Assembly: GCF_021922985.1 (NCBI RefSeq)
Contig: NZ_CP040788.1
Location: forward strand, 2,976,001-3,040,000
Length of the DNA: 64,000 bases
Source: Clavibacter michiganensis subsp. tessellarius
GTDB lineage: Bacteria; Actinomycetota; Actinomycetes; Actinomycetales; Microbacteriaceae
Direction: 5' to 3'
Under the pieces are notes generated by a model that worked only from the letters and a program-made list of their open reading frames with translations, had not been told where the DNA came from and did no database searches. Of this stretch, positions 1-16,370 are shown one piece after another. The number at the start of each line of letters is the position of its first letter. Position 1 is the first letter of the stretch. The position numbers were made by a program, and so were the translations under genes.

Positions 1-3000
1 CCGCCGAGCGCCTCGCGGGCGTCCTCAAGGACGAGAACGGCCTCGACTTCACCATCGGCTTCGTCGACCGGGTCGTGCGCCCCGAGGACCTGCCGGTCGC
101 GGGCAACAGCCTCGCCGCGCTCACCGCCAAGACGCCGGGCTTCCTGCCCTGGTACATGCAGGGCGCGATCCGCGCGGGCGGCATCCTCGGCCCCGTCCTC
201 CCGCAGGTCGTCGTGCCCGTCGCGCGCCGCGTGCTGCGCGAGATGGTCGGGCACCTCATCGTCGACGCGACGAGCGAGAAGCTCGGGCCGGCGATCGAGA
301 AGCTGCGCGCGGGCGGATCCCGCCTCAACCTCAACCTGCTGGGCGAGGCCGTGCTCGGCGAGCAGGAGGCCGCGCGCCGCCTGGCCGGCACGCGCGAGCT
401 GCTCGCCCGCGACGACGTGGACTACGTCTCCATCAAGGTGTCGAGCGTCGTCTCGCAGCTGTCGATGTGGGCGTTCGACGAGGCCGTCGACAAGGTGGTC
501 GAGCGCCTGACTCCCCTGTACGAGCTGGCGTCGGAGGCGGCGACCCCCAAGTTCATCAACCTCGACATGGAGGAGTACAAGGACCTCGACCTCACCATCG
601 AGGTGTTCACGCGCGTGCTCGACCAGCCGCAGCTGAAGGACCTCGAGGCCGGGATCGTGCTGCAGGCGTACCTGCCCGACGCGCTCGCCGGGCTGCAGCG
701 GCTCACCGCGTGGGCGCAGGAGCGTCGCGCGGCGGGCGGGGCGCCCATCAAGGTCCGCATCGTCAAGGGCGCGAACCTCGCGATGGAGCAGGTCGACGGC
801 CGGATGCACGACTGGCCCGTCGCCACCTGGGCCACCAAGGAGCAGACCGACACGCACTACAAGCGCATGCTCGAGCACGCGCTCCAGCCCGCCGCGGCCG
901 ACGCCGTGAAGGTCGGCGTCGCCGGGCACAACCTCTTCGACGTCGCGTACGCGTGGCTGCTCGCCGAGGAGCGCGGCGTGACCGACCGGATCGAGTTCGA
1001 GATGCTGCTCGGCATGGCGACCGGCCAGGCCGAGGCCGTGAAGCGCACGGTCGGCGGGCTGCTGCTGTACACGCCCGTCGTGCACCCGACCGAGTTCGAC
1101 GTGGCGATCTCGTACCTCATCCGCCGCCTGGAGGAGAACGCGAGCCAGGAGAACTTCATGTCGGCGGTGTTCGAGCTGAGCACGTCAGCTGAGCTGTTCG
1201 CGCGCGAGGAGTCGCGGTTCCGCTCGTCGCTCGCCGCCGTCGACGACACGATCCCGGCGCCGAACCGCACGCAGGACCGCCGCTTCCCGCCGGAGCTCGA
1301 CGACGTGGATCCGCTGGCCGAGCCCGAGGCGCACGAGGAGCCCGAGGTCGAGGTCGACCCGCAGCTCACGAACGTGGTCCAGGGCTTCACGCGCGGATCG
1401 CTGCTCACGCCCGACGCGCTCGTCGACCCCGACGCCTCCACCACCCCGTTCCACAACGCCGCGGACACGGATCCGGCGCTGCCGACGAACCGCGCCTGGG
1501 GCCGCGAGATCCTGGCGCGCGTGGAGGCCTCGCGGCTCGGCGTCGCGACCATCGACGCCGCGCGCATCGACTCCACCGACCAGCTGGACGACGTCATCGA
1601 CGGCGTGCGCACGGCCGCCGCCGCGTGGGGCGCCCGCCCCGGCGACCAGCGCGCCGCGCTGCTGCACCGCGTGGGCGTCGCCATCGAGCGCAACCGCGCG
1701 CGCCTCATCGAGGTCATGGCCTCCGAGACCGGCAAGACCATCGCCGAGGCCGACCCCGAGGTCAGCGAGGCCGTGGACTTCGCGCACTACTACGCCGAGC
1801 GCGCCCGCGACCTCGACCGCGTGCAGGGCGCCCGGTTCGTGCCGTCGCGCGTCACCGTGGTGGCGCCGCCGTGGAACTTCCCCGTCGCGATCCCCGCGGG
1901 CAGCATGCTCGCGGCCCTCGCCTCCGGCAGCGGCGTGGTCGTCAAGCCCGCCGGCCAGGCCCGCCGATCCGGCGCCGTGCTGGTCGAGGCGCTCCGCGAG
2001 GCCGGCGTGCCGCGGGAGCTCCTCGCGCTCGTCGACGCCGGCGAGGCCGAGTTCGGCGAGCACCTCATCGCGCACCCCTCGGTCGACCGCGTGATCCTCA
2101 CGGGCGGCTACGAGACCGCCGAGGTCTTCCGCTCCTGGCGCTCGGACCTCCCGCTCCTCGCCGAGACCAGCGGCAAGAACGCCATCATCGTCACGCCCAG
2201 CGCCGACCTCGACCTGGCCGCGGCCGACGTCGTGAAGAGCGCGTTCGGCCACGCCGGCCAGAAGTGCTCGGCGGCGAGCCTGGTGATCCTCGTGGGGTCC
2301 GTCGGGAGGTCCCGCCGGTTCCTCACGCAGCTCACCGACGCGGTGTCGTCGCTGCGCGTCGGCTACCCGTCGGATCCCACCACGCAGATGGGCCCGATCA
2401 TCGAGCCGGCCGCCGGCAAGCTCAAGCACGCGCTCACGCAGCTGGGCGTCGGCGAGAAGTGGCTCGTGGAGCCCGAGGCGAAGGACGAGACCGGCCGCCT
2501 CTGGTCGCCGGGCGTGCGCGACGGCGTGAAGCCCGGGTCGTACGTCCACCTCACCGAGTTCTTCGGCCCCGTGCTCGGCGTGATGCGCGCGCGGAACCTC
2601 GAGGAGGCCATCCGCTTCCAGAACGCGATCCCGTACGGCCTCACCGCGGGCCTGCACAGCCTCGACGCGCGCGAGCTCGAGCAGTGGCTCGAGACCGTGG
2701 AGGCGGGCAACCTCTACGTGAACCGCGGGATCACGGGCGCCATCGTGCAGCGCCAGCCGTTCGGCGGCTGGAAGCGCTCCTCGGTCGGATCCGGCACCAA
2801 GGCCGGCGGCCCGAACTACCTCATGGGCCTCGGCTCCTGGGTCGCGGACGAGGGCCGGCACTCGAGCTCGCTGCACCTGCGCGGGCTGTCGCCGCGGGTC
2901 ACGGAGCTCATCGAGTCGGCGCAGCCCGCCATCCGCTACGAGGACTTCGACCTCGTCCGCCGCTCCGCGCTCAGCGACGCGGTGGCCTGGCACGACGAGT

Positions 3001-3497
3001 TCGGCCAGGTGAAGGACCCGAGCGGCCTCGGCGTGGAGCGCAACCTGTTCCGCTACCGGCCGCTGCCCGTCACGGTGCGGCTCACGGAGTCGGGCGCGCT
3101 CGCCGACCTGCTCCGCGTGCTCGCGGCCGGGCGCCTGGCGCGCGCCGAGATGCACGTGTCGGTCCCGGGGATCCTCCCGGCCGGCCTCGGCCAGGTGCTC
3201 GACGACCTGCCGAGCGTGCACGTGACCATCGAGACGGACGACGCGTGGCTCGCCCGCGTCGGCGCGTCCGGCATCGCGACCGAGCGCGTGCGCCTCGTCG
3301 CCGCCCGCGACGCGCGGCTCGTGGAGGCGCGGGCCCTGTCCGACGCGCTGCGCGGCACGCCCGACGTCGCGGTGTTCGCCGACGAGGTCACCGCGGCCGG
3401 CCGCGTCGAGATGCTCACGTTCCTGCGCGAGCAGGCCATCAGCATCACGGCCCACCGCTTCGGCAACCCGGACGACTGGAGCGAGGCGGTCATCTAG
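1..3497 (+). CDS. putA: Bifunctional proline dehydrogenase / L-glutamate gamma-semialdehyde dehydrogenase (5' end outside the window)
   Basis: Oxidises proline to P5C on FAD, then P5C/glutamate semialdehyde to glutamate on NAD+. The reading frame is already open at base 3, so the start lies upstream; internal GTG or ATG codons near base 75 are not the start. The TIM-barrel ProDH half occupies about the first 400 visible residues (FINLDMEEYKDLDL region). An acidic Glu/Asp-rich linker near 1300-1360 leads to the aldehyde dehydrogenase half. There APPWNFP, the general-base region LAETSGKNA and the nucleophile context GHAGQKCSA (Cys codon near 2265) are visible. About 250 residues follow the ALDH fold, as in other actinobacterial PutA proteins. 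It could accept the semialdehyde made by RocD at 15.1-16.4 kb. The family assignment is firm. Confidence 0.97.
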   Translation, partial: AERLAGVLKDENGLDFTIGFVDRVVRPEDLPVAGNSLAALTAKTPGFLPWYMQGAIRAGGILGPVLPQVVVPVARRVLREMVGHLIVDATSEKLGPAIEKLRAGGSRLNLNLLGEAVLGEQEAARRLAGTRELLARDDVDYVSIKVSSVVSQLSMWAFDEAVDKVVERLTPLYELASEAATPKFINLDMEEYKDLDLTIEVFTRVLDQPQLKDLEAGIVLQAYLPDALAGLQRLTAWAQERRAAGGAPIKVRIVKGANLAMEQVDGRMHDWPVATWATKEQTDTHYKRMLEHALQPAAADAVKVGVAGHNLFDVAYAWLLAEERGVTDRIEFEMLLGMATGQAEAVKRTVGGLLLYTPVVHPTEFDVAISYLIRRLEENASQENFMSAVFELSTSAELFAREESRFRSSLAAVDDTIPAPNRTQDRRFPPELDDVDPLAEPEAHEEPEVEVDPQLTNVVQGFTRGSLLTPDALVDPDASTTPFHNAADTDPALPTNRAWGREILARVEASRLGVATIDAARIDSTDQLDDVIDGVRTAAAAWGARPGDQRAALLHRVGVAIERNRARLIEVMASETGKTIAEADPEVSEAVDFAHYYAERARDLDRVQGARFVPSRVTVVAPPWNFPVAIPAGSMLAALASGSGVVVKPAGQARRSGAVLVEALREAGVPRELLALVDAGEAEFGEHLIAHPSVDRVILTGGYETAEVFRSWRSDLPLLAETSGKNAIIVTPSADLDLAAADVVKSAFGHAGQKCSAASLVILVGSVGRSRRFLTQLTDAVSSLRVGYPSDPTTQMGPIIEPAAGKLKHALTQLGVGEKWLVEPEAKDETGRLWSPGVRDGVKPGSYVHLTEFFGPVLGVMRARNLEEAIRFQNAIPYGLTAGLHSLDARELEQWLETVEAGNLYVNRGITGAIVQRQPFGGWKRSSVGSGTKAGGPNYLMGLGSWVADEGRHSSSLHLRGLSPRVTELIESAQPAIRYEDFDLVRRSALSDAVAWHDEFGQVKDPSGLGVERNLFRYRPLPVTVRLTESGALADLLRVLAAGRLARAEMHVSVPGILPAGLGQVLDDLPSVHVTIETDDAWLARVGASGIATERVRLVAARDARLVEARALSDALRGTPDVAVFADEVTAAGRVEMLTFLREQAISITAHRFGNPDDWSEAVI

Positions 3498-3992: not shown

Positions 3993-4661
3993 ATGCGCGA
4001 GACGGAGGCCATCGCCCGCGCCCGGGCGATGTGGGACGCGGGGCGGCGTCGGGAGGCGACCGCGTCGCTCGTGGACCGGGTGCGGGGCCACCCCCGCGAG
4101 GCGGACGCGCGCCTCACCCTGGCCGGCTGGTACCGCGAGCTCGGGGCGCCGGACCAGGCGGGCCGCTGGGGCATCGCGACGCCGGGCTGGACCACGGAAC
4201 AGGAGCGCGACCGGCTGGCGCGCATGATCGCGACGTCCGGGCACCGCGACGAGGGCGTCGCCGCGTTCCTCGACCTGCCCGGATCCGAGCTCCCGGACCA
4301 CGTGGCCGAGCTGCTCCCGCTCGTGGCGTCGCATCGGGAGCGGTACGCCCGGATCGGGACGCCGATCGGCGAGGCCGGCCCGGCGCCCGACCTCCGCAGG
4401 GAGTCGGCGATCGTGCTGGGCGTCGCGGCCGCGGTGGTGTTCGCCCTGGGGATGCTCCTCGCCGGGATCCTGTCCCTCTTCGGCGTGGACACGGTCGGCG
4501 TCGCGCGCTGGACGGGGGTCGTCGCCCTCGTCCTGCTGAAGTTCGCCGTCCTCACCGTGGGCGTGCGACCGCGTCGGGGCCCATGGTGGATCACGGCGAT
4601 CGCCCTGGTCGTCGCCGTGTCGCTGGTCGTCGCCTACTGGGGCCTGGCGCGGATCGCGTAG
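3993..4661 (+). CDS. DUF6584-like protein with C-terminal membrane helices, copy 1
   Basis: A 222-residue protein of unknown function. The first ~110 residues form a helical, TPR-like cytoplasmic domain with the signature WYRELGAPDQAGRWGIATPGW. Residues ~130-220 hold two to three membrane helices. The resemblance to DUF6584 is from memory. A second copy follows at 4745, so this is a tandem duplication. The ATG sits six bases after CACGAT, the leaderless arrangement common in this window, and starts at the same point as the paralogue. Confidence 0.75.
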   Translation: MRETEAIARARAMWDAGRRREATASLVDRVRGHPREADARLTLAGWYRELGAPDQAGRWGIATPGWTTEQERDRLARMIATSGHRDEGVAAFLDLPGSELPDHVAELLPLVASHRERYARIGTPIGEAGPAPDLRRESAIVLGVAAAVVFALGMLLAGILSLFGVDTVGVARWTGVVALVLLKFAVLTVGVRPRRGPWWITAIALVVAVSLVVAYWGLARIA

Positions 4662-4744
4662 CCGGGCGCCCGGGCGTCCGACCCGACCGCCGGGTCCCGG
4701 GGATGATCCGCTCGCAGCCCACCCGGATCCGCGACCCTGGACGG

Positions 4745-5407
4745 ATGCAGCGCTCCGAGACCGTCGACCGCGCCCGGACGCTCTGGGACGACGGCCGGCG
4801 GCGCGAGGCGATCGTCGAGCTGCGGGATCGCGTCCGGGAGGAGCCGTGCGACGCGGTCGCGCGGCTGCTGCTGGCGTCCTGGTACCGGGAGGTCCGCGCG
4901 CCCGACCAGGCCGGCCGGTGGGGCATCGCGCTCCCGGGCTGGACGACCGCCCGCGAGCGCGAGCTGCTCGCGCGCCTGATCGCCTCCTCCGGCGTGCGCG
5001 ACGAGCACCTCGGGCGCTTCCTCGCGCTGCCCGCGGGCGAGCTGCCCGCCGAGCTGGACGAGGTCATGGCGGTGGTGGGCGGGCTGCGCGCCCCCGACGG
5101 CTGGCGCGGCGCGAAGCCGCTGCGGCGCCGCGACCTGCGGAGCCGGATCGCGCACGCCGTCCACGTGCTCGGCTGGGGGCTGCTCGCGGGCGCCCTCCTC
5201 ATGTCCGGCCTCGTGGCGCTGGCCGGCGACGACGCCACGCCTCCCGCGCGCGGCGGCGTCGCGCTGGGTCTCGTGCTGCTCGCCGTGGCCGCGGTCGTCG
5301 AGGGCACGCGGGCGCGACGCGGCTGGTGGTGGATCGGCCCTGCGGCCGCGCTGCTCGCCGCGGCCCTGGTGGCGGCCGCCGTGGCGCTCGCGCGGATGGC
5401 GGTCTGA
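4745..5407 (+). CDS. DUF6584-like protein with C-terminal membrane helices, copy 2
   Basis: A 220-residue paralogue of the preceding gene. It shares the block APDQAGRWGIA followed by PGWTT and the same layout: a soluble helical half, then hydrophobic helices from about residue 135. The start at ATG 4745 is chosen because it aligns with the paralogue and lies six bases after GACCCT; an in-frame ATG at 4703 would add 14 residues unlike the paralogue. The two copies are clearly related but substantially diverged, so the duplication is old. Function unknown. Confidence 0.75.
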   Translation: MQRSETVDRARTLWDDGRRREAIVELRDRVREEPCDAVARLLLASWYREVRAPDQAGRWGIALPGWTTARERELLARLIASSGVRDEHLGRFLALPAGELPAELDEVMAVVGGLRAPDGWRGAKPLRRRDLRSRIAHAVHVLGWGLLAGALLMSGLVALAGDDATPPARGGVALGLVLLAVAAVVEGTRARRGWWWIGPAAALLAAALVAAAVALARMAV

Positions 5408-5427: not shown

Positions 5428-6009
5428 GTGACCCCCGCTCCCGCCGCCGTGAACGTGTCGGTGGTGCCGGTCGCAGGCCTCGTCGTTCGGGCCGCCCGGA
5501 CCGCCGCCGGCCGCGCCGCCCTGCGGGCGCTCGCCGCGGAGATCGTGGGCGCGGATCCGGCCGACGTCACTGTCCGCGCCCGCTGCGCGACCTGCGGCGG
5601 AGAGCACGGCCGTCCGGTGCTCGGCGGATCCCGCGCGCTCGACGGCCTGCACGCGAGCGTCGCGCACGCGGGCGACGCCGTGGTGGTCGCGGTGTCGACG
5701 GACGGGCCGATCGGCATCGATGCCGAGCCGCGCGGCCGGGAGGCGCCGCCCGGGACGACGCTCGGGGAGTGGGTGCGGATCGAGGCGGTGCTGAAGGCCG
5801 ACGGGCGCGGGCTCCGCGTCGACCCGTCGCGCGTGCGGTCCGCGGGCGACGCGCACGGGTCCGTCGCGTGGATCGACGGCGAGCCCGCGCGCTACCGGGT
5901 GGTCGACGCGGAACTCGGGAGCGGCCTGGTCGCGGCGGTCGCGCGGCGCGGCCTCGGGCAGGTGGTCGTGCGGATCCGGGACCCGGACGGGCCGGGATCC
6001 GGCGCCTGA
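5428..6009 (+). CDS. Sfp-type 4'-phosphopantetheinyl transferase
   Basis: Transfers phosphopantetheine from CoA to the conserved serine of carrier-protein domains. The 193-residue sequence has the actinobacterial Cys-rich approach motif CATCGGEHGRP, the histidine strand ASVAHAGDAVVVAVS, the Mg-binding IGIDAE, and WVRIEAVLKADGRG corresponding to W-x-x-K-E-A-x-x-K. The usual KEA lysine is Ile here. The gene converges on the carrier-protein-containing synthetase locus at 6.0-11.5 kb, its obvious client. The GTG start lies six bases after TAGGGT, suggesting a leaderless mRNA. Confidence 0.85.
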   Translation: MTPAPAAVNVSVVPVAGLVVRAARTAAGRAALRALAAEIVGADPADVTVRARCATCGGEHGRPVLGGSRALDGLHASVAHAGDAVVVAVSTDGPIGIDAEPRGREAPPGTTLGEWVRIEAVLKADGRGLRVDPSRVRSAGDAHGSVAWIDGEPARYRVVDAELGSGLVAAVARRGLGQVVVRIRDPDGPGSGA

Positions 6010-6013
6010 CCCC

Positions 6014-7327
6014 TCAGCGCCGCCCCACCTTCGGCAGCTGCGGCAGCGGCCCGTCCGTGAGCCAGGCCCGCAGCAGCGCGCCCGCGTCGCCGGCGGCGCC
6101 GACGAGGTCGGCGGTGGTGCGCGGCGCCGTCCACGCCGGATCCGTCCAGCGGAGGAGCAGCGCGCGCCATGCCGCGTCGCCGAGCGTCAGCCGGAGCGCG
6201 TGCACCGCGAGGGCGCCGCGCTTGTAGACGACGTCGTCGAACATCGCCTCGGGGCCGGGATCGCCGATGCCGACCTGCGTGCCGTACCGGTCGAGGCGCG
6301 CGTGGTGCTGGCGCGCGAGCGCGTCCGTGGTCGGGCCCCCGGACTCCTCCGACCACAGCCACTCGGCGTAGCAGGCGAAGCCCTCGTTGAGCCAGATGTG
6401 CTGCCACGACGCGAGGCCCACGGAGTTGCCGAACCACTGGTGCGCGAGCTCGTGGGCGACGAGCCGCTCGGATCCGCCCGTGCCGTCCGCGTGGTTCGAG
6501 CCGAGCACGGCCATCGCCTGCGCCTCGAGCGGGATCTCCAGCTCGTCGTCCGTGACGACCACGCGGTACTCGCCGAACGGGTACGGCCCGAACAGCGTCT
6601 CGAAGAAGGCCATCATGCGCGGCACGAGCGCGAGGTCCTGCAGCACCCGGGCCTCGCGCGGCTTCGGGTACGCGAAGACGGCCTGGGTGGATCCGGCGGG
6701 CACGCGCTTCTCGACGTACCGGCCGATCTGCACGGTCGCGAGGTACGGCGCGGTGGGCGCGTCCTGCTCGTAGGTCCAGGTCGCGCGGCCGGAGCGCTCG
6801 AGCCGGGACACGAGCCGGCCGCTCGCGACCACCGAGTAGTCGACCTCGCACGCGACACGGATGCGGAAGGCGGCCCGCACGTCCGGCCGGTCGTTGCAGG
6901 GGAACCACGTGGACGCGCCGCTCGGCTGCGACGCGACGAGCACGCCGTCGCCGAGCTCCTCCCAGCCGAGGTCGCCCCAGACGGTGCGTCGGGGGCCGGG
7001 CTCGCCGGAGTAGGCGACGTCGACCGTGAAGGACGCGCCCGCGGGGATGGGAGCCGCGGGCGTGACCACGAGGCGGCCGCCGCGCTGCACGTGCCGGGTC
7101 TCGCGGCGGCCGTCGACGCGGACGTCGCCGGCGCGGAGGCCCGTGAGGTCGAGCTCGAACCGGGGGAGGTCCTCGCGGGCCGTGGCGGTGATCACCGCGC
7201 GCGCCTTGAGGCGGTTGCGGGCCACGCGGTAGTCGAGGTCGAGGTCGTAGCGCTCCACGGAGTACGCGGTGGAGCCGACCTCGGGGGTGTAGCCGTCGCC
7301 GGACGCGGGTCCCGCCGCGGCCCTCAC
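6014..7327 (-). CDS. M1-family zinc aminopeptidase, short form, coupled to the synthetase gene
   Basis: A 437-residue gluzincin without the C-terminal ERAP1-like domain. The zinc site is exact: HELAH, 18 residues, then NEGFACYAE (HEXXH-X18-E). The catalytic tyrosine lies in VVYKRGALAVHAL. The usual GAMEN exopeptidase motif is replaced by PLEAQAM. The chosen GTG start (7327) overlaps the TGA of the upstream synthetase as GTGA, so translation is probably coupled; the frame is open further upstream but only inside the synthetase gene. No signal peptide is seen, so it is probably cytoplasmic. It may trim or degrade the synthetase product, since the epsilon-poly-lysine-degrading enzymes of Streptomyces are also zinc aminopeptidases (recalled). 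That role is inference. Confidence 0.88.
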   Translation of the reverse strand: MRAAAGPASGDGYTPEVGSTAYSVERYDLDLDYRVARNRLKARAVITATAREDLPRFELDLTGLRAGDVRVDGRRETRHVQRGGRLVVTPAAPIPAGASFTVDVAYSGEPGPRRTVWGDLGWEELGDGVLVASQPSGASTWFPCNDRPDVRAAFRIRVACEVDYSVVASGRLVSRLERSGRATWTYEQDAPTAPYLATVQIGRYVEKRVPAGSTQAVFAYPKPREARVLQDLALVPRMMAFFETLFGPYPFGEYRVVVTDDELEIPLEAQAMAVLGSNHADGTGGSERLVAHELAHQWFGNSVGLASWQHIWLNEGFACYAEWLWSEESGGPTTDALARQHHARLDRYGTQVGIGDPGPEAMFDDVVYKRGALAVHALRLTLGDAAWRALLLRWTDPAWTAPRTTADLVGAAGDAGALLRAWLTDGPLPQLPKVGRR

Positions 7328-10300
7328 CGGCGACCGGCGGTCGCGGGGGCGGGGGAGTCGACGGAGGCGGAGGCGGCCGACGCGGCGGCGTCGGCGGCGG
7401 GCGCGGCGTCCGCCGGCAGGTAGCGTCCCGTCTTCACCTCGCGCCACGGGCCGATCGGGTTGCCGCTCCAGCGGCTCGCCTCGGGCACGAGCTCGCCGCG
7501 CATCACGAGGCTCGCGGGGCCCACGGTGGCCTGCGGGCCGATGCGCGCCGCGGGGAGGATGACGCTGTGCGGCCCGAGGCTCGCACCGGCGTCGAGGGTG
7601 ACGGTGTCCATGCTCATGATCCGATCATGGAACAGATGCGTCTGCACGACACAGCCGCGGTTGATCGTGGATGCGTCCCCGAGGGTCACCAGGTCGGCCT
7701 CCGGCAGCCAGTGCGAGTCGCACCACACGCCGGATCCGATGCGCGCGCCCAGGCTCCGCAGCCACCAGACGAGCGCGGGCGTGCCGGCGGCCGACGACGC
7801 GAACCAGGGCGCGGCGACCATCTCGGTGAACACGTCGGAGACCTCGCTGCGCCACACGAACGACGACCACAGCGGGTGCTCCTCCGCGCGGATGCGGCCG
7901 ATGAGGATCCACTTGGCCGCCGTCGAGATGCCCGCGGCCACCGCGCCCGCCACGAGCAGCACGACGCCGCCGAGCAGGAACGCGACGAGCGGCCCCCACG
8001 CCTCCGTGATCGCGGCGAGCGTCACGAGCACGGCCAGGCCGATCGCGCAGGTCACGAGCACGGGCACGACGCGGAGCAGCTCCCAGAGGATGCGGGCCAC
8101 GCGCAGCCGGGTCGGCGGCCGGAACGTGCGCGAGTCGTCGGCCGCGGCGACCGTGCGGCGGAGCCGGACGGGCGGGGAGCCGAGCCACGAGGATCCGGCC
8201 TTCGACTTCGTGGGCGCCGCCGAGAGCACGGCGACGAGGCCGTCCTTCGGGACCTTGTGGCCGGGCCCGGCCATGCCGGAGTTGCCGAGGAACGCGCGCT
8301 GGCCGATCTCGGCGCGGGCGACGCGCATCCACCCGCCGCCGAGCTCGTAGCCGGCCACGAGCGTGTCGTCGGCGAGGAAGGCGCCGTCGCGGATCGTGGT
8401 CATCGCGGGGATGAGGAGCACGGTCGACGCCTCCACGTCCTTGCCGACGCGCGCGCCGAGCAGGCGGAGCCAGACGGGCGTGAAGAGGCCCGCGTAGAGC
8501 GGGAAGAGCACGGTGCGGGCGAGGTCGAGCAGGCGCTCGGTGGTCCAGAGCTGCCAGCCGACGCGGCTCCGCACCGCGTGGATGCCCTCGGTCACGCCGA
8601 GGCCGAGGAGGCGCACGGATCCGACCACCAGCAGCGCGAGCACCAGCCCGGTCACGAGCACCGCGGGCACGAGCGCGCCGAGGCCGCGCCACCACGCGTC
8701 GCCGAGGTCGGCGGATCCGCGGATGGCCGTCGCGAGGATCCCGCCGCCCGCGACGAACGCCACGACGGGCACGAGCGCGGTCGCCACGGACGCGGCGCCG
8801 TACGCCGCGACCCAGCGCGTGTTCCGCGGCGGCCGGTGGTCGGGCCACCACACTCGGGCCTTGCCCTCGCGCGCGGCGGGGGATCCGGCCCAGCGCTGGC
8901 CGGACGGCACGCGCCCGAAGACCGCGGAGCCCGGCGCGATCTCCGCGCCCTTGCCGATGCGCGTGCCCGGCAGCAGCGTCGAGCGGGTGCCCACCGTGGA
9001 TCCCGCGCCGATGCGGACGGCCCCGACGCGGACGGTGTCGCCGTCGATCCAGTACCCGGAGAGGTCGACCTCGGGCTCGACGGAGGCGCCGCGGCCGATC
9101 CGGAGCATGCCCGTGACGGGCGGCAGCGTGTGCAGGTCGACGTCGTCGGCGATGCGCGCGCCGAGCGCCCGCGCGTAGTACGTGATCCACGGCGCGCCCG
9201 CGAGCCCGACCGCGCCGATCTGCTGCGCGATCTGCTCGGCCAGCCAGAGCCGCAGGTGCCAGCGGCCGCCGCGCGGGTGGTCGCCCGGCGTGAGGCCGCG
9301 GAGCAGGAGGCGCGCGGCGACCGCGGAGATCGCCATGCGGCCGAACGGCGTCGCGAAGAGGAGGAGGCCCGGCACGAGCAGCCAGAGGGGGACGGACGGC
9401 AGCGCGTCGAAGCCGCCGAGCGGCCGCAGCAGCGCGGAGCCCGTGAGCAGGAGCGCGAGCCAGCGGAGGCCCTGCAGGGCGAGGAGGGGCGCGCCGAGGA
9501 GGGTCTGGATCCACTGCGTGCGGCGCGGCGTCGGCCGCACGTCCACCTGCGGTCCGGTGCGCGCGGCCCGCGGCGCGCGTCCGGCCATGGCCGCGTGCAT
9601 GGCGCCGAGGCGCGGGTGGGCGTAGACGTCGGCGACCGTGAACTCGGGGTCGATCGACCGGATCCGGGCCACGAGCTGCGCCGCCGACAGGGATCCGCCG
9701 CCCAGGTCGAAGAAGTTCGCGTCGGCGCTCGCCACGGGCGTGCCGAGCGCGGCCGACCACATCTCGGCGAGCGGGCGCAGCTCGGCGTCGAGGTCGGCGC
9801 CCTCGTCGCCCGCGGCGCCGGGGAGCGGCCAGGGGAGCGCGGCGCGGTCGACCTTGCCGGAGGTGCGCGTGGGCAGCGACTCGACCACGCCGATGAGCGG
9901 CACGAGCGCCGCCGGCAGGGCGACGCGGAGGCGCTGCACGGCGTCCTCGCGCGAGAAGGTCGCGGGATCCCGCGGCACGAGGTATCCGACGAGCACCGGG
10001 TTGCCCGCGCCCGTGGTCTGCACCGCGACGGCGGCGCCCTGCACGTCGTCGAGCGCCTGCAGCGCGGCCTCGATCTCGCCCAGCTCGATGCGCCGGCCGC
10101 CGACCTTCACCTGGTCGTCGGCGCGGCCCTGGAAGACGAGGCCCTCCGCCTCGAAGCGCACGAGGTCGCCCGAGCGGTAGGCGCGGTCCCAGCCGAGCGC
10201 GGGGAAGGGGGCGTACTTCTCGGCGTCCTTGGCGGGATCCAGGTAGCGGGCCAGCCCGACGCCGCCGATGATCAGCTCGCCCACGCCGCCCTCGGGCACG

Positions 10301-11499
10301 CGCGCGCCGTCGGCGTCGACCACCGCGAGGGTCCAGCCGTCGAGCGGCAGGCCGATGCGCACCGGTCCCGGCCCGCCGAGAGGCGCCGCGCACGCGACGA
10401 CGGTCGCCTCGGTGGGGCCGTACGTGTTCCAGACCTCGCGGCCGTCGGTCGCGAGGCGCTGGCCGAGCTCGGGCGGGCAGGCCTCGCCGCCGAAGATGAG
10501 CAGGCGCACGTTCTCGAGCGACTCCGCGGGCCACAGCGCCGCGAGCGTCGGCACGGTGGACACGATGGTCACGCCGTGCGTCGTGAGCCAGGGCCCGAGG
10601 TCCATGCCGCTGCGGACGAGGCTGCGCGGTGCCGGCACGAGGCACGCGCCGTGGCGCCAGGCGAGCCACATCTCCTCGCAGCTGGCGTCGAACGCGACCG
10701 ACAGGCCCGCGAGCACGCGGTCGCCGGGGCCGATCGGCTCGTCCTGGAGGAAGAGGCGCGCCTCCGCGTCGACGAACGCGGCGGCCGAGCGGTGCGAGAC
10801 CGCGACGCCCTTGGGGGTGCCGGTGGATCCCGAGGTGAAGATGATCCACGCGTCGTCGCCGGGCGCAGGCGGCGTCACGAGGGGGAGCGCGGAGGTGGAG
10901 GCGTGCGCGGCGGCGGTGGGGAGGATCCGGAGCGCGGCCGCCGTGGCGCGTGCGGCGTCGCCCGCGCTGCCCTCGCCGGCGTCCGCGGCGCCGTCCTCGT
11001 CGGCGGCGCGCGGCGCGTACTCGCCCGTGCCCGTCACGACGCCCGCGACGCGCGCCTCGCCGAACACCAGCCGCGCGCGCTCCTCGGGGTCGTCCGCGTC
11101 CACCGGCACGTAGGCGGCGCCGGCCGCGAGCACGCCGAGCACCGTGACGTAGAGGTCGCGGGACCCGGACGGCATGCGGATCCCGACCCGGTCGCCCTTC
11201 TCGACGCCCGCCTCCCGCAGCGACGCGGCGACCTGCACCACGCGCGCCATGAGCTCGCGGTAGCTGAGGGCGCCGTCGCCGTCCTCGATGGCGGAGGCGT
11301 CGGGGTGCGCGGCGACGGTCGCGCGGAGCACGTCCACGAGCGTGCGCGCGGGAGTGACGGCGTCGGCCCCGTCGAGGACCCGCTGCGCGTGGGCGGGGGC
11401 GGCGGCCTCGGCGGCGCCCGCGGCGGCCTCCTCCGGAGGAGCGCCCGCGGCCCGTGCGTCGTCGTGCGGCGTCGCCGCCTCCGGGGAGGACTCGGGCAT
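7324..11499 (-). CDS. Pls-type nonribosomal poly(amino acid) synthetase (A-T-membrane domain)
   Basis: A 1391-residue membrane NRPS with the architecture of epsilon-poly-L-lysine synthetase. An adenylation domain spans about residues 20-530 (FTSGSTGTPKG, NTYGPTEAT, YRSGDLV, GRADDQVKVGGRRIE). A carrier domain follows, with phosphopantetheine Ser603 in FFDLGGGSLSA. Six hydrophobic helices in three pairs then alternate with three tandem soluble domains rich in hexapeptide-like repeats (LGARI.. , IGAGSTVG, IGKGAEI). There is no condensation or thioesterase domain. My manual reading of the specificity pocket is D-A-E-S-I-G-T-V-V-K, near the published Lys code. ATG 11499 is preceded by GGAG; the frame is open further upstream without a better start. 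Product unproven: a cationic isopeptide polymer is the best guess. Confidence 0.88.
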   Translation of the reverse strand: MPESSPEAATPHDDARAAGAPPEEAAAGAAEAAAPAHAQRVLDGADAVTPARTLVDVLRATVAAHPDASAIEDGDGALSYRELMARVVQVAASLREAGVEKGDRVGIRMPSGSRDLYVTVLGVLAAGAAYVPVDADDPEERARLVFGEARVAGVVTGTGEYAPRAADEDGAADAGEGSAGDAARATAAALRILPTAAAHASTSALPLVTPPAPGDDAWIIFTSGSTGTPKGVAVSHRSAAAFVDAEARLFLQDEPIGPGDRVLAGLSVAFDASCEEMWLAWRHGACLVPAPRSLVRSGMDLGPWLTTHGVTIVSTVPTLAALWPAESLENVRLLIFGGEACPPELGQRLATDGREVWNTYGPTEATVVACAAPLGGPGPVRIGLPLDGWTLAVVDADGARVPEGGVGELIIGGVGLARYLDPAKDAEKYAPFPALGWDRAYRSGDLVRFEAEGLVFQGRADDQVKVGGRRIELGEIEAALQALDDVQGAAVAVQTTGAGNPVLVGYLVPRDPATFSREDAVQRLRVALPAALVPLIGVVESLPTRTSGKVDRAALPWPLPGAAGDEGADLDAELRPLAEMWSAALGTPVASADANFFDLGGGSLSAAQLVARIRSIDPEFTVADVYAHPRLGAMHAAMAGRAPRAARTGPQVDVRPTPRRTQWIQTLLGAPLLALQGLRWLALLLTGSALLRPLGGFDALPSVPLWLLVPGLLLFATPFGRMAISAVAARLLLRGLTPGDHPRGGRWHLRLWLAEQIAQQIGAVGLAGAPWITYYARALGARIADDVDLHTLPPVTGMLRIGRGASVEPEVDLSGYWIDGDTVRVGAVRIGAGSTVGTRSTLLPGTRIGKGAEIAPGSAVFGRVPSGQRWAGSPAAREGKARVWWPDHRPPRNTRWVAAYGAASVATALVPVVAFVAGGGILATAIRGSADLGDAWWRGLGALVPAVLVTGLVLALLVVGSVRLLGLGVTEGIHAVRSRVGWQLWTTERLLDLARTVLFPLYAGLFTPVWLRLLGARVGKDVEASTVLLIPAMTTIRDGAFLADDTLVAGYELGGGWMRVARAEIGQRAFLGNSGMAGPGHKVPKDGLVAVLSAAPTKSKAGSSWLGSPPVRLRRTVAAADDSRTFRPPTRLRVARILWELLRVVPVLVTCAIGLAVLVTLAAITEAWGPLVAFLLGGVVLLVAGAVAAGISTAAKWILIGRIRAEEHPLWSSFVWRSEVSDVFTEMVAAPWFASSAAGTPALVWWLRSLGARIGSGVWCDSHWLPEADLVTLGDASTINRGCVVQTHLFHDRIMSMDTVTLDAGASLGPHSVILPAARIGPQATVGPASLVMRGELVPEASRWSGNPIGPWREVKTGRYLPADAAPAADAAASAASASVDSPAPATAGRR

Positions 11500-11602
11500 G
11501 TGGTCTCCGATCGGACGGGGCGGCGTGCGTACTGTCGGGCCTCCGGGTGAACGGGAGGTGGAATCGCGGCGACCCCGGGGCTCCGGAGCCCGCGGCGGCG
11601 GA

Positions 11603-11971
11603 TCAGCCGGCCGCGAGCGCCTCGTCCACCAGGCGTCGTGCATCGGCGTCGGAAGCGCCGAGCCGCCGCGCGAGCTGCGCGTACGCGGCGGCGGATGCCC
11701 GCAGCGCCGCCGGCACGTCGTCCTGCGCCGCGACGAACGACCCGGCGCGTCCGCGCGTCTCGATCACGCCGTCCGCCTCGAGCTCCTTGTACGCCCGCGC
11801 GACCGTGTTGACGGCGACGCCCGCCTGCTCGGCGAGCGCCCGCACGGTCGGCAGCCGCGCGCCGACCGGCAGCTCGCCCGCCGCGGCCCGGCGCGCGACC
11901 TCCGCGCGGAGCTGCTCGTAGGGCGGGATCGCGGAGCCCGGGTCGATGCGGTAGCCGGGCGCGGGATCCAT
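11603..11971 (-). CDS. GntR-family (YtrA-like) transcriptional regulator
   Basis: A 122-residue regulator with a winged helix and only a short C-terminal helical tail, the YtrA subfamily layout. The HTH reads LPTVRALAEQAGVAVNTVARAYKELEADGVI. It lies 103 bases upstream of the Pls-type synthetase on the same strand and probably controls it; YtrA regulators often govern membrane and antibiotic-response operons. TAGCCT is followed by six bases and the ATG, so the mRNA is probably leaderless. The effector is unknown. Confidence 0.88.
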   Translation of the reverse strand: MDPAPGYRIDPGSAIPPYEQLRAEVARRAAAGELPVGARLPTVRALAEQAGVAVNTVARAYKELEADGVIETRGRAGSFVAAQDDVPAALRASAAAYAQLARRLGASDADARRLVDEALAAG

Positions 11972-12545: not shown

Positions 12546-12932
12546 ATGTCGATCACCACGCCCGGGCTGGGCGCCTACGAGACGGCCATCCGCGCGTCTG
12601 ATGCTGAGCTGGTCGCCGGCCTCCGCGAGGTCCTCGGCGCCAAGCTCGTCGCCTACCTCGGCTCCGTGCAGGAGACGCGCGCCGTCCGACAGTGGGCGGA
12701 GGGGGAGCGCGTCCCGTCCGCGGTGGCCATGAACCGGTTGCGCCTGGCCTTCCACGTCGCGGGGATCCTCGTCGAGCGAGAGCATCCCCGGGTGGTGCAG
12801 GCCTGGTTCACCGGCCTCAACCCGCAGCTCGACGATGCCTCGCCCGCACGTCTCATCCGGGAGTCCCCGGACCTCGACGAGGCGGGCGCCCGGATCCTGG
12901 CGTCGGCCCGCTCCTTCGTCGCGAACGCCTGA
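12546..12932 (+). CDS. Xre/MbcA/ParS-like antitoxin of a RES-type toxin-antitoxin pair
   Basis: A 128-residue DNA-binding antitoxin. The N-terminal half is a helix-turn-helix of the Xre type (VAGLREVLGAKLVAYLGSV through VRQWAEGERVP). The C-terminal part (VVQAWFTGLNPQLDDASPARLI) matches the MbcA/ParS module that blocks the RES active site. The ATG is six bases after TAGCAT. It ends ten bases before the toxin gene. Codons such as TCT, GAT and GCT are commoner than in neighbours, suggesting transfer. Identification rests on the domain pattern and the RES partner. Confidence 0.8.
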   Translation: MSITTPGLGAYETAIRASDAELVAGLREVLGAKLVAYLGSVQETRAVRQWAEGERVPSAVAMNRLRLAFHVAGILVEREHPRVVQAWFTGLNPQLDDASPARLIRESPDLDEAGARILASARSFVANA

Positions 12933-12942
12933 GGCGGGATCG

Positions 12943-13656
12943 GTGGAACGGCCCCGCCCTGCGCTGCGCACGGACCCGGGCGAGGTGTGGCGGGTGGGAC
13001 GCGCCCCGGATCCGTGGGGCTGGACGGACTGGCGGTACGCCGAACGCGGTCGCTTCCCCGGGCGGTGGGATTCCCCCGACGGCTCGTACCGCACGATCTA
13101 CGCCGGCTCGACCCCGCACGCGTGCCTGGTCGAGCTGATCGCGCCGTTCCGCCCCGACCCGTCCGTGGCCGACGATCTCGCGGCCATCGTGGAGGACGAG
13201 GCGGACGCTGCGCTGCATCCGACCGTCGCCCCCGGTCGTCTCGACGACTCGTGGTTCGGCGCCCGGCGTCTCGGTCGCGCCGTCCTCACGGGGACCTACT
13301 GCGACGTCACCCACTCGTCGACCGTCGCCGCTCTCCGTCCTCGGTTCCTCGACCAGGCGCGACAGGCCGGACTGGCGGACCTCGACGTGGCAGCCCTGCA
13401 GGACGCGCGTCCCCGTCAGCTGACCCAGGCGATCGGGCGGGCGCTGTACGAGGAGACGGAGGACGGACGCGCGGTCGTCGACGGGATCCGGTTCCCGTCA
13501 CGCCACGGGCGTGACCTCGAGCTGTGGGCGGTGTTCGAGCGCGCCTCCGACGTCGGTCGGAGCGGTCGTCTGACCGAGGCGACCGTGCAGGCGCTCGACG
13601 CCGATCACCCGGCCGTGCGCTCCGCTGCGGCGCTCCACGGCGTGCGGATCGGCTAG
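12943..13656 (+). CDS. RES-domain toxin (putative NAD+ phosphorylase/hydrolase)
   Basis: A 237-residue RES-domain protein. Family members such as MbcT and ParT destroy NAD+ or ADP-ribosylate a target and arrest growth. The core is seen as WRYAERGRFPGRW, then YRTIYAGSTPHACLVELI, with further conserved positions around GRALYEETEDG. The GTG at 12943 gives a sensible N-terminus just after the antitoxin stop; the frame is open further upstream but overlaps the antitoxin. It converges on the Lrp gene with only two bases between stops. Whether it acts as a phosphorylase or a glycohydrolase cannot be read from the sequence. Confidence 0.85.
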   Translation: MERPRPALRTDPGEVWRVGRAPDPWGWTDWRYAERGRFPGRWDSPDGSYRTIYAGSTPHACLVELIAPFRPDPSVADDLAAIVEDEADAALHPTVAPGRLDDSWFGARRLGRAVLTGTYCDVTHSSTVAALRPRFLDQARQAGLADLDVAALQDARPRQLTQAIGRALYEETEDGRAVVDGIRFPSRHGRDLELWAVFERASDVGRSGRLTEATVQALDADHPAVRSAAALHGVRIG

Positions 13657-13658
13657 CC

Positions 13659-14096
13659 CTACTCCAGCGTCCGGTTCACCAGCCGCGAGAGCACGATGGC
13701 GCTGCGGGTGTGGTCGACGTTCGGGGCGAGGCGCACCTTCTCGAGCGCGTCCTCGAGGCTCGGGATGTCGCGCGAGCGGATGCGGACGATGGCGTCGGCG
13801 TCGCCCGTGACGGTGCCCGCGTCGACGACCTCGGGCACCCCCTGGAGGATCCGGCGCAGCTCGTCGGGCGCGACCGTCCCGCGGCAGAACAGCTCCACGT
13901 AGGCCTCGGTGCTGAGGCCGTCGACGGCGGGATCGACCTGGATCGTGAAGCCGCGGATCACGCCGTCGGCCACCAGCCGGTCGACCCGCCGCTTCACCGC
14001 GCTGGCCGAGAGGCCGACGGTGCCGCCGATGTCGCCGTAGCCGGCGCGTCCATTCTGGCGGAGGAGGTCGATGATCCGGTGGTCCAGGTTGTCCAT
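13659..14096 (-). CDS. Lrp/AsnC-family transcriptional regulator
   Basis: A 145-residue feast/famine regulator: an N-terminal HTH (LDHRIIDLLRQNGRAGYGDIG, then SASAVKRRVDRLVADGVI) and a C-terminal RAM ligand-binding domain (GDADAIVRIRSRDI). It is divergent from the arginine dihydrolase-like gene and rocD, a common arrangement for an activator of arginine/ornithine use. TAGGCT, six bases, then ATG implies a leaderless transcript. The effector is probably an amino acid such as arginine or ornithine (inference). Confidence 0.9.
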   Translation of the reverse strand: MDNLDHRIIDLLRQNGRAGYGDIGGTVGLSASAVKRRVDRLVADGVIRGFTIQVDPAVDGLSTEAYVELFCRGTVAPDELRRILQGVPEVVDAGTVTGDADAIVRIRSRDIPSLEDALEKVRLAPNVDHTRSAIVLSRLVNRTLE

Positions 14097-14275
14097 GCTC
14101 CGAGCCTATGGCGGGATCCTGCGCCGGACGGGGGTCGGACGCGCGGAATCCGCGCCGCGCCCCCTCGAACGGGCGTGATGCGCCTGCCAGGCTGACGGGA
14201 AGGCGTCCCCTCGGGGCTCTGGGACATCGTCCGCCTCCACGACCGCGCCCCGGCGCCGCACGAAGCAGGAGCACC

Positions 14276-15118
14276 ATGCCCTCCACCCTCTCCCGGCCCG
14301 CGGACACCGCATCCGGCCGCACCCCCGTCGCGAAGCGCGTGCTGATGTGCCGGCCCGACCACTTCGACGTGGTCTACAAGATCAACCCCTGGATGGACCC
14401 GGCCGTCCCGACCGACACCTCGCTCGCGGTGCGCCAGTGGCAGACCCTGCACGACGCGTACGTGGGCCTCGGCATCCAGGTCGAGCTGATCGACGGCATC
14501 GCCGGCCTGCCGGACATGGTCTACGCGGCCAACGGCGGCTTCACGCTCGACGGCATCGCGTACGGCGCCGCGTTCCAGTTCCCCGAGCGCCAGCCCGAGG
14601 GCCCCGCGTACATGGACTGGTTCCGCGAGGCGGGCTTCGACGTGCGCGTGCCCGAGCAGGTCAACGAGGGCGAGGGCGACATCCTCCTCGTCGGCGACAC
14701 GATCCTCGCGGGCACCGGCTTCCGCAGCGACAGCACCAGCCACGCCGAGGTGGCCCGGATCTTCGACCGCGAGGTCGTGACCCTCCGCCTCGTGAACCCG
14801 TCGTTCTACCACCTGGACACCGCGATCGCGGTGCTCGACGACGCGAACATCGCCTACCTGCCGAGCGCCTTCGACGCCGCGAGCCTCGACGAGATCGAGC
14901 GCCGCTACCCCGACGCGATCGAGGTCAGCGAGCAGGACGCGTCGATCCTCGGCCTCAACTCGTACAGCGACGGCCTGCACGTCGTGATCGCCGAGAAGGC
15001 CGTGGGCTTCGAGGCGTCGCTGCGCGAGCGCGGCTACGAGCCCATCGGCGTCGACCTGTCCGAGCTGCTGCTCGGCGGCGGCGGCGTGAAGTGCTGCACG
15101 CTCGAGCTGCGGCAGTAG
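14276..15118 (+). CDS. Arginine dihydrolase / dimethylarginine dimethylaminohydrolase-family enzyme
   Basis: A 280-residue amidinotransferase-fold guanidine hydrolase. The catalytic Cys is near the C-terminus in GGGGVKCCTLEL, the His is in PSFYHLDTA, and the acidic region is NEGEGDILLVGDT. Databases usually call this DdaH. However, the N-terminal VLMCRPDHFDVVYKINPWMD resembles cyanobacterial ArgZ/AgrE and mycobacterial Rv2323c-type proteins, where an Asn in INPWM supports full conversion of arginine to ornithine (recalled). The downstream rocD, eight bases away, would use ornithine. The ATG at 14276 follows AGGAG. Family certain; arginine dihydrolase activity is a moderate inference. Confidence 0.85.
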   Translation: MPSTLSRPADTASGRTPVAKRVLMCRPDHFDVVYKINPWMDPAVPTDTSLAVRQWQTLHDAYVGLGIQVELIDGIAGLPDMVYAANGGFTLDGIAYGAAFQFPERQPEGPAYMDWFREAGFDVRVPEQVNEGEGDILLVGDTILAGTGFRSDSTSHAEVARIFDREVVTLRLVNPSFYHLDTAIAVLDDANIAYLPSAFDAASLDEIERRYPDAIEVSEQDASILGLNSYSDGLHVVIAEKAVGFEASLRERGYEPIGVDLSELLLGGGGVKCCTLELRQ

Positions 15119-15125
15119 GCCCCCG

Positions 15126-16370
15126 ATGACCGACACGATCGACCGCCCCGCCGCCTCCGAGGCCGGCGCCCTGGCCATCCACGCGGAGGAGGCGCACGCC
15201 GCGCACAACTACCACCCGCTGCCCGTCGTGGTCGCGTCCGGCCAGGGCGCGTGGGTCACCGACCTCGACGGCCGGCGCCTGCTCGACTGCCTCGCCGCCT
15301 ACTCGGCCGTGAACTTCGGGCACTCGCACCCCGACCTCGTGCGGGCCGCGACCGAGCAGCTCGGGCGGATCACGCTCACGAGCCGCGCGTTCCACAACGA
15401 CAAGCTGGGCCCGTTCGTCACGGCCCTCGCCGAGCTCGCCGGCAAGGACATGGTGCTGCCGATGAACACGGGCGCCGAGGCCGTGGAGTCCGGCATCAAG
15501 GTCGCGCGCGCCTGGGGCTACCGCGTGAAGGGCGTCGCCGCGGGCCGCGCGAAGATCATCGTGATGGCCGGCAACTTCCACGGCCGCACCACCACCATCG
15601 TCAGCTTCAGCGACGACGAGGAGGCGCGCGCCGACTTCGGCCCGTTCACGCCCGGCTTCGTGACGGTGCCGTACGGCGACGCCGCGGCGCTCGAGGCCGC
15701 GATCGACGCGGACACGGTCGCCGTGCTCGTCGAGCCGATCCAGGGCGAGGCCGGCATCGTCGTGCCGCCCGCCACGTTCCTCGCGGACGTGCGGCGCATC
15801 TGCACGCGCGAGCGGGTGCTGATGATCGCGGACGAGATCCAGTCGGGCCTCGGCCGCACGGGCGCCACCTTCGAGTGCGACAACGCCGGCATCGTGCCGG
15901 ACCTCTACCTCCTCGGCAAGGCGCTCGGCGGCGGCATCGTGCCCGTCTCCGCGGTCGTCGGCGACGCGGACGTGCTGGGCGTCATCCAGCCGGGGCAGCA
16001 CGGATCCACCTTCGGCGGCAACCCGCTGGCCGCGGCCGTGGGCCACGCGGTCGTCGCGATGCTCGCGACCGGCGAGCCGCAGGAGCGCGCACGTCGCCTC
16101 GGCGCCGTGCTGCACGCGCGGCTCGCGGACCTCGTGGGCCACGGCGTGCTCGAGGTGCGCGGTCGCGGCCTGTGGGCCGGCATCGACATCGACCCCGCGC
16201 TCGCCACGGGCCGCGCGGTCTGCGAGCGGCTCGCCGAGCGCAGCGTGCTGGCCAAGGACACGCACGGCTCGACGATCCGGCTCGCGCCGCCCATCGTGGT
16301 GGAGGAGGAGGACCTCGTCTGGGCCGTCGACCAGCTCGCCGCGGTGCTCCGGGAGCTCGGGGCGCGCTGA
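15126..16370 (+). CDS. rocD: Ornithine aminotransferase
   Basis: A 414-residue class-III PLP aminotransferase converting ornithine and 2-oxoglutarate to glutamate semialdehyde and glutamate. The PLP lysine is in LYLLGKALGGGIVPVSAVV; the cofactor region reads MNTGAEAVESGIKVARAWGY, and EPIQGEAGIVVP and ADEIQSGLGRTG are clear. Length matches RocD. It follows the arginine-hydrolase-like gene by seven bases in one operon, and PutA encoded at the left end could finish the route to glutamate. Confidence 0.95.
   Translation: MTDTIDRPAASEAGALAIHAEEAHAAHNYHPLPVVVASGQGAWVTDLDGRRLLDCLAAYSAVNFGHSHPDLVRAATEQLGRITLTSRAFHNDKLGPFVTALAELAGKDMVLPMNTGAEAVESGIKVARAWGYRVKGVAAGRAKIIVMAGNFHGRTTTIVSFSDDEEARADFGPFTPGFVTVPYGDAAALEAAIDADTVAVLVEPIQGEAGIVVPPATFLADVRRICTRERVLMIADEIQSGLGRTGATFECDNAGIVPDLYLLGKALGGGIVPVSAVVGDADVLGVIQPGQHGSTFGGNPLAAAVGHAVVAMLATGEPQERARRLGAVLHARLADLVGHGVLEVRGRGLWAGIDIDPALATGRAVCERLAERSVLAKDTHGSTIRLAPPIVVEEEDLVWAVDQLAAVLRELGAR

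What the first reader, a model, noticed from the sequence alone, without database searches (positions are those of the whole stretch)
5428..11971. Self-contained poly(amino acid) synthetase locus: phosphopantetheinyl transferase, M1 peptidase, Pls-type synthetase and GntR regulator
Seen: an A-T protein with six membrane helices and three tandem soluble domains, a peptidase coupled to it by GTGA, an activating PPTase converging with five bases between stops, and a YtrA-type regulator upstream. Known: Streptomyces epsilon-poly-lysine synthetase has exactly this domain order. Inference: the locus makes, sizes and controls an exported cationic homopolymer, which in a plant-associated actinobacterium could act in competition or surface charge.
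Basis: partly seen in the sequence, partly recalled or inferred. Interest (0 to 1): 0.72.

Follow-up and report, generated by a model that had tools for sequence, protein, structure and literature searches.

The report
Polylysine locus with phosphate-starvation promoter
This is a set of genes for making a sticky, positively charged lysine polymer (epsilon-polylysine), a known kind of system, but its on-switch looks like the one bacteria use when they run short of phosphate, which would say when and perhaps why they make it.

Summary
Window 7324-11499 (-) is a full Pls/PosA synthetase (TIGR02353, 718 bits, cut-off 423). Its ten pocket residues equal those of the S. albulus epsilon-polylysine synthetase, and it groups with S. 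albulus-like enzymes, away from ornithine, Dap/Dab and beta-lysine types. The M1 peptidase gene overlaps it by four bases, as pldII does in S. albulus. In a family sample the peptidase is adjacent in 47 of 47 Pls genomes and a PPTase is near in 36. Synthetase plus peptidase is a known kind; I did not find the PPTase link described.

The peptidase shows no export signal. The GntR gene is at this place in Clavibacter only, one distant locus apart. Between gntR and pls lies a tandem PHO box (11-nt repeats, GTTCACC core) in register with a -10 element; the same motif precedes pstS, phoX, phnG and ppk here. The architecture recurs in 15 of 16 Clavibacter, 17 of 29 other Microbacteriaceae and 13 of 25 held-out ones, in 0 of 50 distant Pls and 0 of 21 Streptomycetaceae. 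Best reading: an epsilon-polylysine locus under phosphate-starvation (PhoP) control. No polymer or regulation was measured.

The parts
7324..11499 (-). pls: Pls/PosA-type synthetase, A-T-(2 TM + soluble domain) x3, 1391 aa; lysine pocket DAESIGTVVK
6014..7327 (-). M1-family metallopeptidase, PldII-like, 437 aa, GTGA overlap with pls, no export signal seen
5428..6009 (+). Sfp-type 4'-phosphopantetheinyl transferase, convergent with the peptidase gene, 4 bases between stops
11546..11563 (-). tandem PHO box TTCCACC-TCCC-GTTCACC in the gntR-pls gap, ending 46 nt before the pls start codon
11531..11536 (-). putative -10 element GACAGT, 27 nt after the start of the first repeat; fits TANNNT only at A2 and T6
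11603..11971 (-). GntR regulator (Rv1152-like), 122 aa; at this place in Clavibacter only, role in pls control not shown

Best explanation
The locus makes epsilon-poly-L-lysine. The linked PPTase arms the carrier domain of Pls; the adenylation domain loads lysine; the membrane-bound three-part C-terminal domain joins lysines through their side-chain amines and passes the chain out; the co-translated M1 peptidase, which here looks cytoplasmic, cuts polymer that stays or returns inside and so protects the cell. Transcription of pls-M1 starts at its own promoter, where PhoP binds two 11-nt PHO-box repeats in place of a -35 element, so the locus is switched on by phosphate starvation. Shown here: gene content, fold, pocket residues, tree, conserved gene order, and motif with its spacing. 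Inferred: product, linkage, export, the peptidase's substrate and place, PPTase-Pls pairing, PhoP binding and its sign.
For: Pocket identical to 7WEW at all ten positions, 67% identity to it; in a 67-row clade (SH-aLRT 100, quick tree) with four rows 91-94% identical to 7WEW, which stand in for it since 7WEW is an A domain only and was left out of the tree; M1 next to 59 of 77 DAE-type Pls but 1 of 39 others; PPTase near 36 of 47 Pls in the family sample. PHO box: of seven own-genome hits with at most one mismatch, six lie before ppk, pstS, a HAD-like hydrolase with a phosphonate-binding protein beyond it, phoX (two overlapping hits) and phnG-phnH; one is unassigned. 27 hits against 6 for the pattern read backwards. 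Box plus -10 at +27: Clavibacter 15 of 16, other Microbacteriaceae 17 of 29, shuffles 0.00-0.13 per group; held-out 8 of 15 and 5 of 10, shuffles 0.02 and 0.05. Offset profile over 33 sites: TANNNT 11 times at +27, 0-3 at any other offset. In this genome each TANNNT found 18-75 nt after these boxes sits in the same 11-nt register: +49 at pstS-1, pstS-2 and the hydrolase, +60 at phoX, +71 at phnG; ppk and the unassigned site have none. S. albulus pldII overlaps pls by 4 nt (PMC4361855, passages) and its repression lengthens the polymer (PMC9223678, passages).
Against: No product was measured. C. variabile, with a working Pls, made none under the conditions tried (PMC8117764, parts 1-2 of 4). 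The pls box has two mismatches in 14 and its -10 lacks the first T. 12 of 29 and 12 of 25 other Microbacteriaceae lack the architecture, and so do 21 of 21 Streptomycetaceae and 13 of 13 Mycobacteriales. The +27 offset was found on the first set before it was tested on the second. PhoP can repress as well as activate. The genome has other PPTase-like genes, so the linked one may not be the only activator; in 11 of 47 genomes none was found nearby.
Confidence: 0.7

Rival explanations
1. Epsilon-polylysine locus controlled by the neighbouring GntR regulator, with the PHO-like motif a coincidence or a minor input.
For: gntR lies directly upstream on the same strand in all 18 Clavibacter genomes read; regulators next to the genes they control are common (general knowledge).
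Against: GntR was not found at this place in the other Microbacteriaceae loci read, while the PHO-box architecture recurs there, also in held-out genomes. The conserved block is inside the gntR-pls gap.
Confidence: 0.15
2. The synthetase makes another cationic homopolymer (ornithine, Dab, Dap or beta-lysine).
For: The family makes all of these; A-domain codes predict imperfectly.
Against: Ten of ten pocket residues as in 7WEW; ornithine (DMEHNGTV), Dap/Dab-like (DFE) and beta-lysine (DGES[IV]SVVNK) codes fall outside the 68-row clade that holds the window. A lysine-type enzyme of Corynebacterium was shown to make epsilon-polylysine (PMC8117764).
Confidence: 0.06
3. The peptidase acts outside the cell and sets the chain length of exported polymer.
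For: PldII of S. albulus is reported outside the membrane and its repression shifts the length range (PMC9223678, passages).
Against: 56 of 60 Pls-adjacent M1 proteins, this one included, fall under the hydrophobicity threshold that S. albulus-like ones pass; a sequence test only, with start codons uncertain.
Confidence: 0.2

Closest known systems
pls-pldII operon of Streptomyces albulus
   Same: Same synthetase domain order, same ten pocket residues, peptidase gene coupled by a 4-nt overlap
   Different: Here a convergent PPTase gene, no export signal on the peptidase, and a PHO-box promoter. S. albulus-like loci show none of the three; other Streptomycetaceae loci lack the PPTase and the PHO box but also lack the export signal
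pls of Corynebacterium variabile and other coryneforms (PMC8117764, parts 1-2 of 4)
   Same: Lysine-type Pls with an operon peptidase; homologues also reported there from Microbacterium and Arthrobacter isolates
   Different: The two parts read name no PPTase and no trigger; they speak of an unknown trigger signal
NAPAA clusters predicted in Microbacteriaceae (Herbiconiux, PMC10011130; Subtercola, PMC10303725; passages)
   Same: antiSMASH class for epsilon-polylysine-like synthetases, so such loci in this family are already on record
   Different: No product, gene order or regulation in the passages seen
PosA, delta-poly-L-ornithine synthetase of Acinetobacter baumannii (PMC10522769)
   Same: Same A-T-membrane domain family
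   Different: Different pocket, single-gene operon; PosA-like codes fall outside the window's clade
Pho regulon promoters of actinobacteria (PMC9019756, PMC6283541, passages)
   Same: 11-nt direct repeats with GTTCACC core
   Different: I saw no report of pls as a member; the two epsilon-polylysine reviews searched do not use the words PhoP or pho regulon

Membership tests
Pls/PosA homopolymer synthetase (TIGR02353) | C-terminal domain over the curated cut-off, with A and T domains in front | tested here: met
   718 bits against 423.1; TIGR01733 350.6 against 317.4; PP-binding
Pls/PosA homopolymer synthetase (TIGR02353) | Six membrane helices in three pairs with beta-helix soluble parts | tested here: met
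   Hydropathy, model, Foldseek
Epsilon-poly-L-lysine synthetase | Lysine pocket code | tested here: met
   DAESIGTVVK, as 7WEW
Epsilon-poly-L-lysine synthetase | Groups with the S. albulus enzyme and not with Orn/Dap/Dab/beta-Lys types | tested here: met
   68-row clade, all DAE; S. albulus is represented by rows 91-94% identical to 7WEW; quick tree only
Epsilon-poly-L-lysine synthetase | Makes the polymer | not testable with these tools
   needs bench work
PldII-type peptidase | M1 metallopeptidase, zinc motif, coupled to pls | tested here: met
   HELAH, NEGFA, GTGA overlap; 44% identity to the S. albulus-like M1
PldII-type peptidase | Located outside the membrane | tested here: not met
   no hydrophobic N-terminus; a sequence test only, so it works like PldII at most inside the cell
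Sfp-type PPTase | Fold, metal-binding motif and W..xEA..K motif | tested here: met
   GIDAE and WVRIEAVLK; Sfp fold; the usual K of KEA (recalled) is I here
YtrA-type GntR regulator | GntR DNA-binding domain | tested here: met
   PF00392; the YtrA subfamily and its operator were not tested
Pho regulon member (PHO box) | Tandem 11-nt repeats with GTTCACC core at a promoter | tested here: met
   12 of 14 core positions, -10 in register, recurrent and held-out
Pho regulon member (PHO box) | PhoP binds and controls it | not testable with these tools
   needs binding and expression assays

The most novel reading that the evidence does not exclude
In Clavibacter and much of the Microbacteriaceae epsilon-polylysine is a phosphate-starvation product: pls is a direct PhoP target, which would explain why such loci look silent in ordinary media, and the polymer serves life at low phosphate (competition for, or binding of, phosphate-bearing polymers, or repair of wall charge when teichoic acid is cut back).
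Probability: 0.65. Interest if true: 0.62.

Novelty: new variant of a known kind. Interest (0 to 1): 0.5.

Why it matters
The natural role and trigger of epsilon-polylysine are open; Jiang et al. (PMC8117764, parts 1-2 of 4) got none from C. variabile and supposed an unknown trigger signal. A PHO box in fixed register with the promoter gives a simple, testable trigger for a large part of the Microbacteriaceae, a way to wake these loci for a widely used food preservative, and a link between phosphate supply and a cationic polymer in plant-associated bacteria. It would not explain Corynebacterium or Streptomyces, where the architecture was not found.

Tried and rejected
Ornithine as substrate, suggested by the ornithine and proline catabolism genes beside the locus (aminotransferase, DDAH-like, PutA): rejected by the pocket code. 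PPTase as a misread ORF, because Pfam and NCBIfam barely see it: rejected by homologues, Sfp profile match and model. GntR as the general controller: weakened. Inverted repeats before gntR and before pls: I saw no matching conservation in the genus alignment, dropped. Plasmid search for named reference synthetases: 19 records, used only to note that pls also occurs on plasmids. A PHO box before Streptomycetaceae or Mycobacteriales pls: 0 of 21 and 0 of 13. Searches for print on Clavibacter with poly-lysine, polylysine or NAPAA: one search gave 1 paper, one search gave 9, all unrelated by their listing; one search gave none; (with nonribosomal peptide synthetase and antiSMASH) gave 13, of which only PMC7143919 was opened (passages): it names no polylysine cluster in Rathayibacter toxicus although a Pls protein under that name is. 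All searches cover open-licence PMC only, and none was left for pls with PhoP.

Limits of counts. One search used coordinates typed; pieces of one gene in one genome were joined as coordinates, and five M1 pieces away from pls were left out. One search has 209 rows, some genomes twice, 7WEW itself among them. The tree is the quick method with long branches flagged. One search's threshold missed L257, whose N-terminus looks like those that passed. In 'lysine-type' means 1400 bits or more against the window-built profile and 'distant' means less; of the 116 rows 51 are below, 12 of them with a lysine code, so the control group of 50 is mostly, not wholly, non-lysine. One search dropped loci with short or duplicate upstream stretches; the one Clavibacter miss was not followed up. 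One search printed its result and then stopped with an index error in a leftover line; ten stretches it could not place were done with borders.

Full report
WHAT IS THERE. Pls runs from ATG 11499 to 7324 on the minus strand (1391 aa) with AMP-binding, carrier and hexapeptide matches and TIGR02353 at 718 bits, cut-off 423. It is the only match over that cut-off in the genome. Hydropathy gives three helix pairs, each followed by a soluble part; a model of the last 738 residues (pLDDT 90.5) shows runs of short strands after each helix pair, and its nearest solved structures are hexapeptide acyltransferases, at low whole-model TM-score. This fits the published model of PosA, three left-handed beta-helices over six helices (PMC10522769, section 13). 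The M1 gene starts inside the Pls stop (GTGA) and runs 7327-6014; its best solved relative is a 474-residue chain named 'zinc metalloprotease, putative' (6a8z, E 2.6e-51). The PPTase gene converges on it with four bases between the stops.

WHERE. The closest proteins carry Clavibacter names (95% and 94% identity) and 18 of 18 genomes of the genus have the gene, so the genome is very probably a Clavibacter; the species was not determined. In 120 genomes sampled from the family, 47 have Pls, the same 47 have the M1 next to it on the same strand, and 36 of the 47 have a PPTase match within 4 kb: 32 convergent beyond the peptidase, 4 in front of Pls on its strand, 11 with none found at E 1e-5. One genome has a weak PPTase match and no Pls, two have an M1 match and no Pls. 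PPTase matches, some of them weak, also lie beside other Pls types and in records of other phyla. Such loci are on record as NAPAA clusters in Herbiconiux and Subtercola (PMC10011130 and PMC10303725, passages).

WHICH POLYMER. The A domain is 67% identical to the solved S. albulus domain 7WEW and has the same ten pocket residues, DAESIGTVVK, as do 201 of 209 rows aligned, 7WEW included. Published codes are DMEHNGTVSK for ornithine and DGESISVVNK for beta-lysine, with Phe at the second place for the Dap enzyme (PMC10522769, Results parts 1-3). Among 116 full-length Pls the window sits in a 68-row clade, all lysine-type, which also holds four rows 91-94% identical to 7WEW; the ornithine, Dap/Dab-like and beta-lysine types fall outside, as do nine lysine-coded rows, eight of them from other phyla. 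The M1 gene is next to 59 of 77 lysine-coded but 1 of 39 other Pls, as expected if its job is to cut this polymer. A lysine-type Pls of Corynebacterium makes epsilon-polylysine in a heterologous host (PMC8117764, parts 1-2 of 4).

HOW IT DIFFERS FROM THE PROTOTYPE. In S. albulus the pls and pldII genes overlap by four bases too (PMC4361855, passages), and PldII is reported outside the membrane, its repression giving longer chains (PMC9223678, passages). So the coupling is known. But only 4 of 60 Pls-adjacent M1 proteins pass a hydrophobic N-terminus test, three of them S. albulus-like; this one does not. The zinc motif HExxH is kept in all 60. I infer an inside role, protection, for most of the clade. 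The PPTase has GIDAE and WVRIEAVLK, variants of motifs shared by its relatives (78 rows, 8 of them without the first motif); fold and profile are Sfp's. The genome has three other places that match the PPTase family profile, two over its cut-off.

THE SWITCH. The gntR gene sits before pls in the 18 Clavibacter genomes and, among the other loci read, in one distant locus only, where it is between Pls and M1. The 103-base gntR-pls gap holds a block that stays nearly constant across Clavibacter while its surroundings vary: TTCCACCTCCCGTTCACCCGGAGGCCCGACAGT. GTTCACC is the most conserved part of the 11-nt repeats of the actinobacterial PHO box (PMC9019756 and PMC6283541, passages). In this genome the two perfect tandem sites lie before a polyphosphate kinase and before pstS. 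One-mismatch sites lie before a weakly HAD-like hydrolase with a phosphonate-binding protein beyond it, before PhoX (two overlapping) and before phnG-phnH; one is unassigned. A two-mismatch site lies before the second pstS. The pls site shares 16 of 18 bases with the pstS site. The pattern has 27 hits with up to two mismatches, 6 when read backwards; with a -10 added and three mismatches allowed, 12 against 1. At the phosphate genes a TANNNT follows at +49 (pstS-1, pstS-2, hydrolase), +60 (phoX) and +71 (phnG), all in one 11-nt register with the +27 of pls; ppk and the unassigned site have none between +18 and +75.

IS IT MORE THAN CHANCE. In 300 bases before Pls, the exact core is in 15 of 16 Clavibacter, 33 of 88 other Pls above 1400 bits and 2 of 50 more distant Pls; shuffles of the 88 give 3.1 on average, at most 6, and of the 50 give 1.7. 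Over 33 sites a TANNNT sits 11 times exactly 27 bases after the start of the core and 0-3 times at any other offset from 7 to 45; NANNNT peaks at 27 and at 16, eleven bases apart. With one rule (two cores 11 apart, 10 of 14 or better, NANNNT at +27): Clavibacter 15/16, other Microbacteriaceae 17/29, other Micrococcales 3/11, other actinomycetes 6/14, Streptomycetaceae 0/21, Mycobacteriales 0/13, distant Pls 0/50; shuffles 0.00-0.13 per group, at most 1. The offset had been chosen on that set, so I applied the unchanged rule to 25 further Microbacteriaceae: 8 of 15 (shuffle mean 0.02) and 5 of 10 (0.05). The core read backwards gave 0. Genomes of one family are not independent, but many genera are in the sample.

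VERDICT. Member of the epsilon-polylysine synthetase kind by every sequence test made, with a linked PPTase and a probably cytoplasmic peptidase, and with a promoter that marks it as a likely PhoP target. The synthetase finding alone would be ordinary. The phosphate switch was not met in what I searched (no search was left for pls with PhoP), and it makes the open question of the trigger testable.

Noticed in passing
L023, L024 (G012), L021, L025 (G007): In two Clavibacter relatives pls is not whole: one has its two halves about 2.4 Mb apart on one contig (M1 stays with the 3' half), the other shows two frame changes in pls and one in M1; these may be real losses or assembly errors.
   Followed up: partly
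L130, L132, L135, L152, L154: Split Pls loci: the TIGR02353 domain in a gene of its own, a separate A-domain gene beside it in four of the five, and no M1 match (L130 checked).
   Followed up: partly
L166 (G087): A second Pls of the DFE (Dap/Dab-like) code in a Microbacteriaceae genome that also has the lysine type, with a PPTase upstream and no M1.
   Followed up: no
L184, L186, L188, L190, L214, L235: Weak PPTase matches (41-77 bits) within about 110 bases of Pls genes in proteobacterial, Chlamydiae and Conexibacter records; three of the six Pls have other than lysine codes.
   Followed up: partly
window 12546-13656: A RES-domain protein (PF08808) preceded by a small ORF without family match; the pair looks like a RES/Xre-type toxin-antitoxin (resemblance recalled).
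   Followed up: partly
window 3993-5407: Two neighbouring DUF6584-like proteins in tandem, both below the Pfam cut-off, probably a duplication.
   Followed up: no
window 75-3497 and 13659-16370: PutA, Lrp-type regulator, DDAH-like hydrolase and class-III aminotransferase: an ornithine/proline catabolism neighbourhood around the locus.
   Followed up: partly
H1-H11: Pls genes on plasmids or second replicons of Rhodococcus, Nocardia, Arthrobacter, Mycobacterium avium/intracellulare and others, 56-64% identical.
   Followed up: no
L265 (own genome C1:2814377-2814394): A one-mismatch tandem PHO-box match near a GNAT-like and a DUF6421 protein, with no -10 in register.
   Followed up: partly
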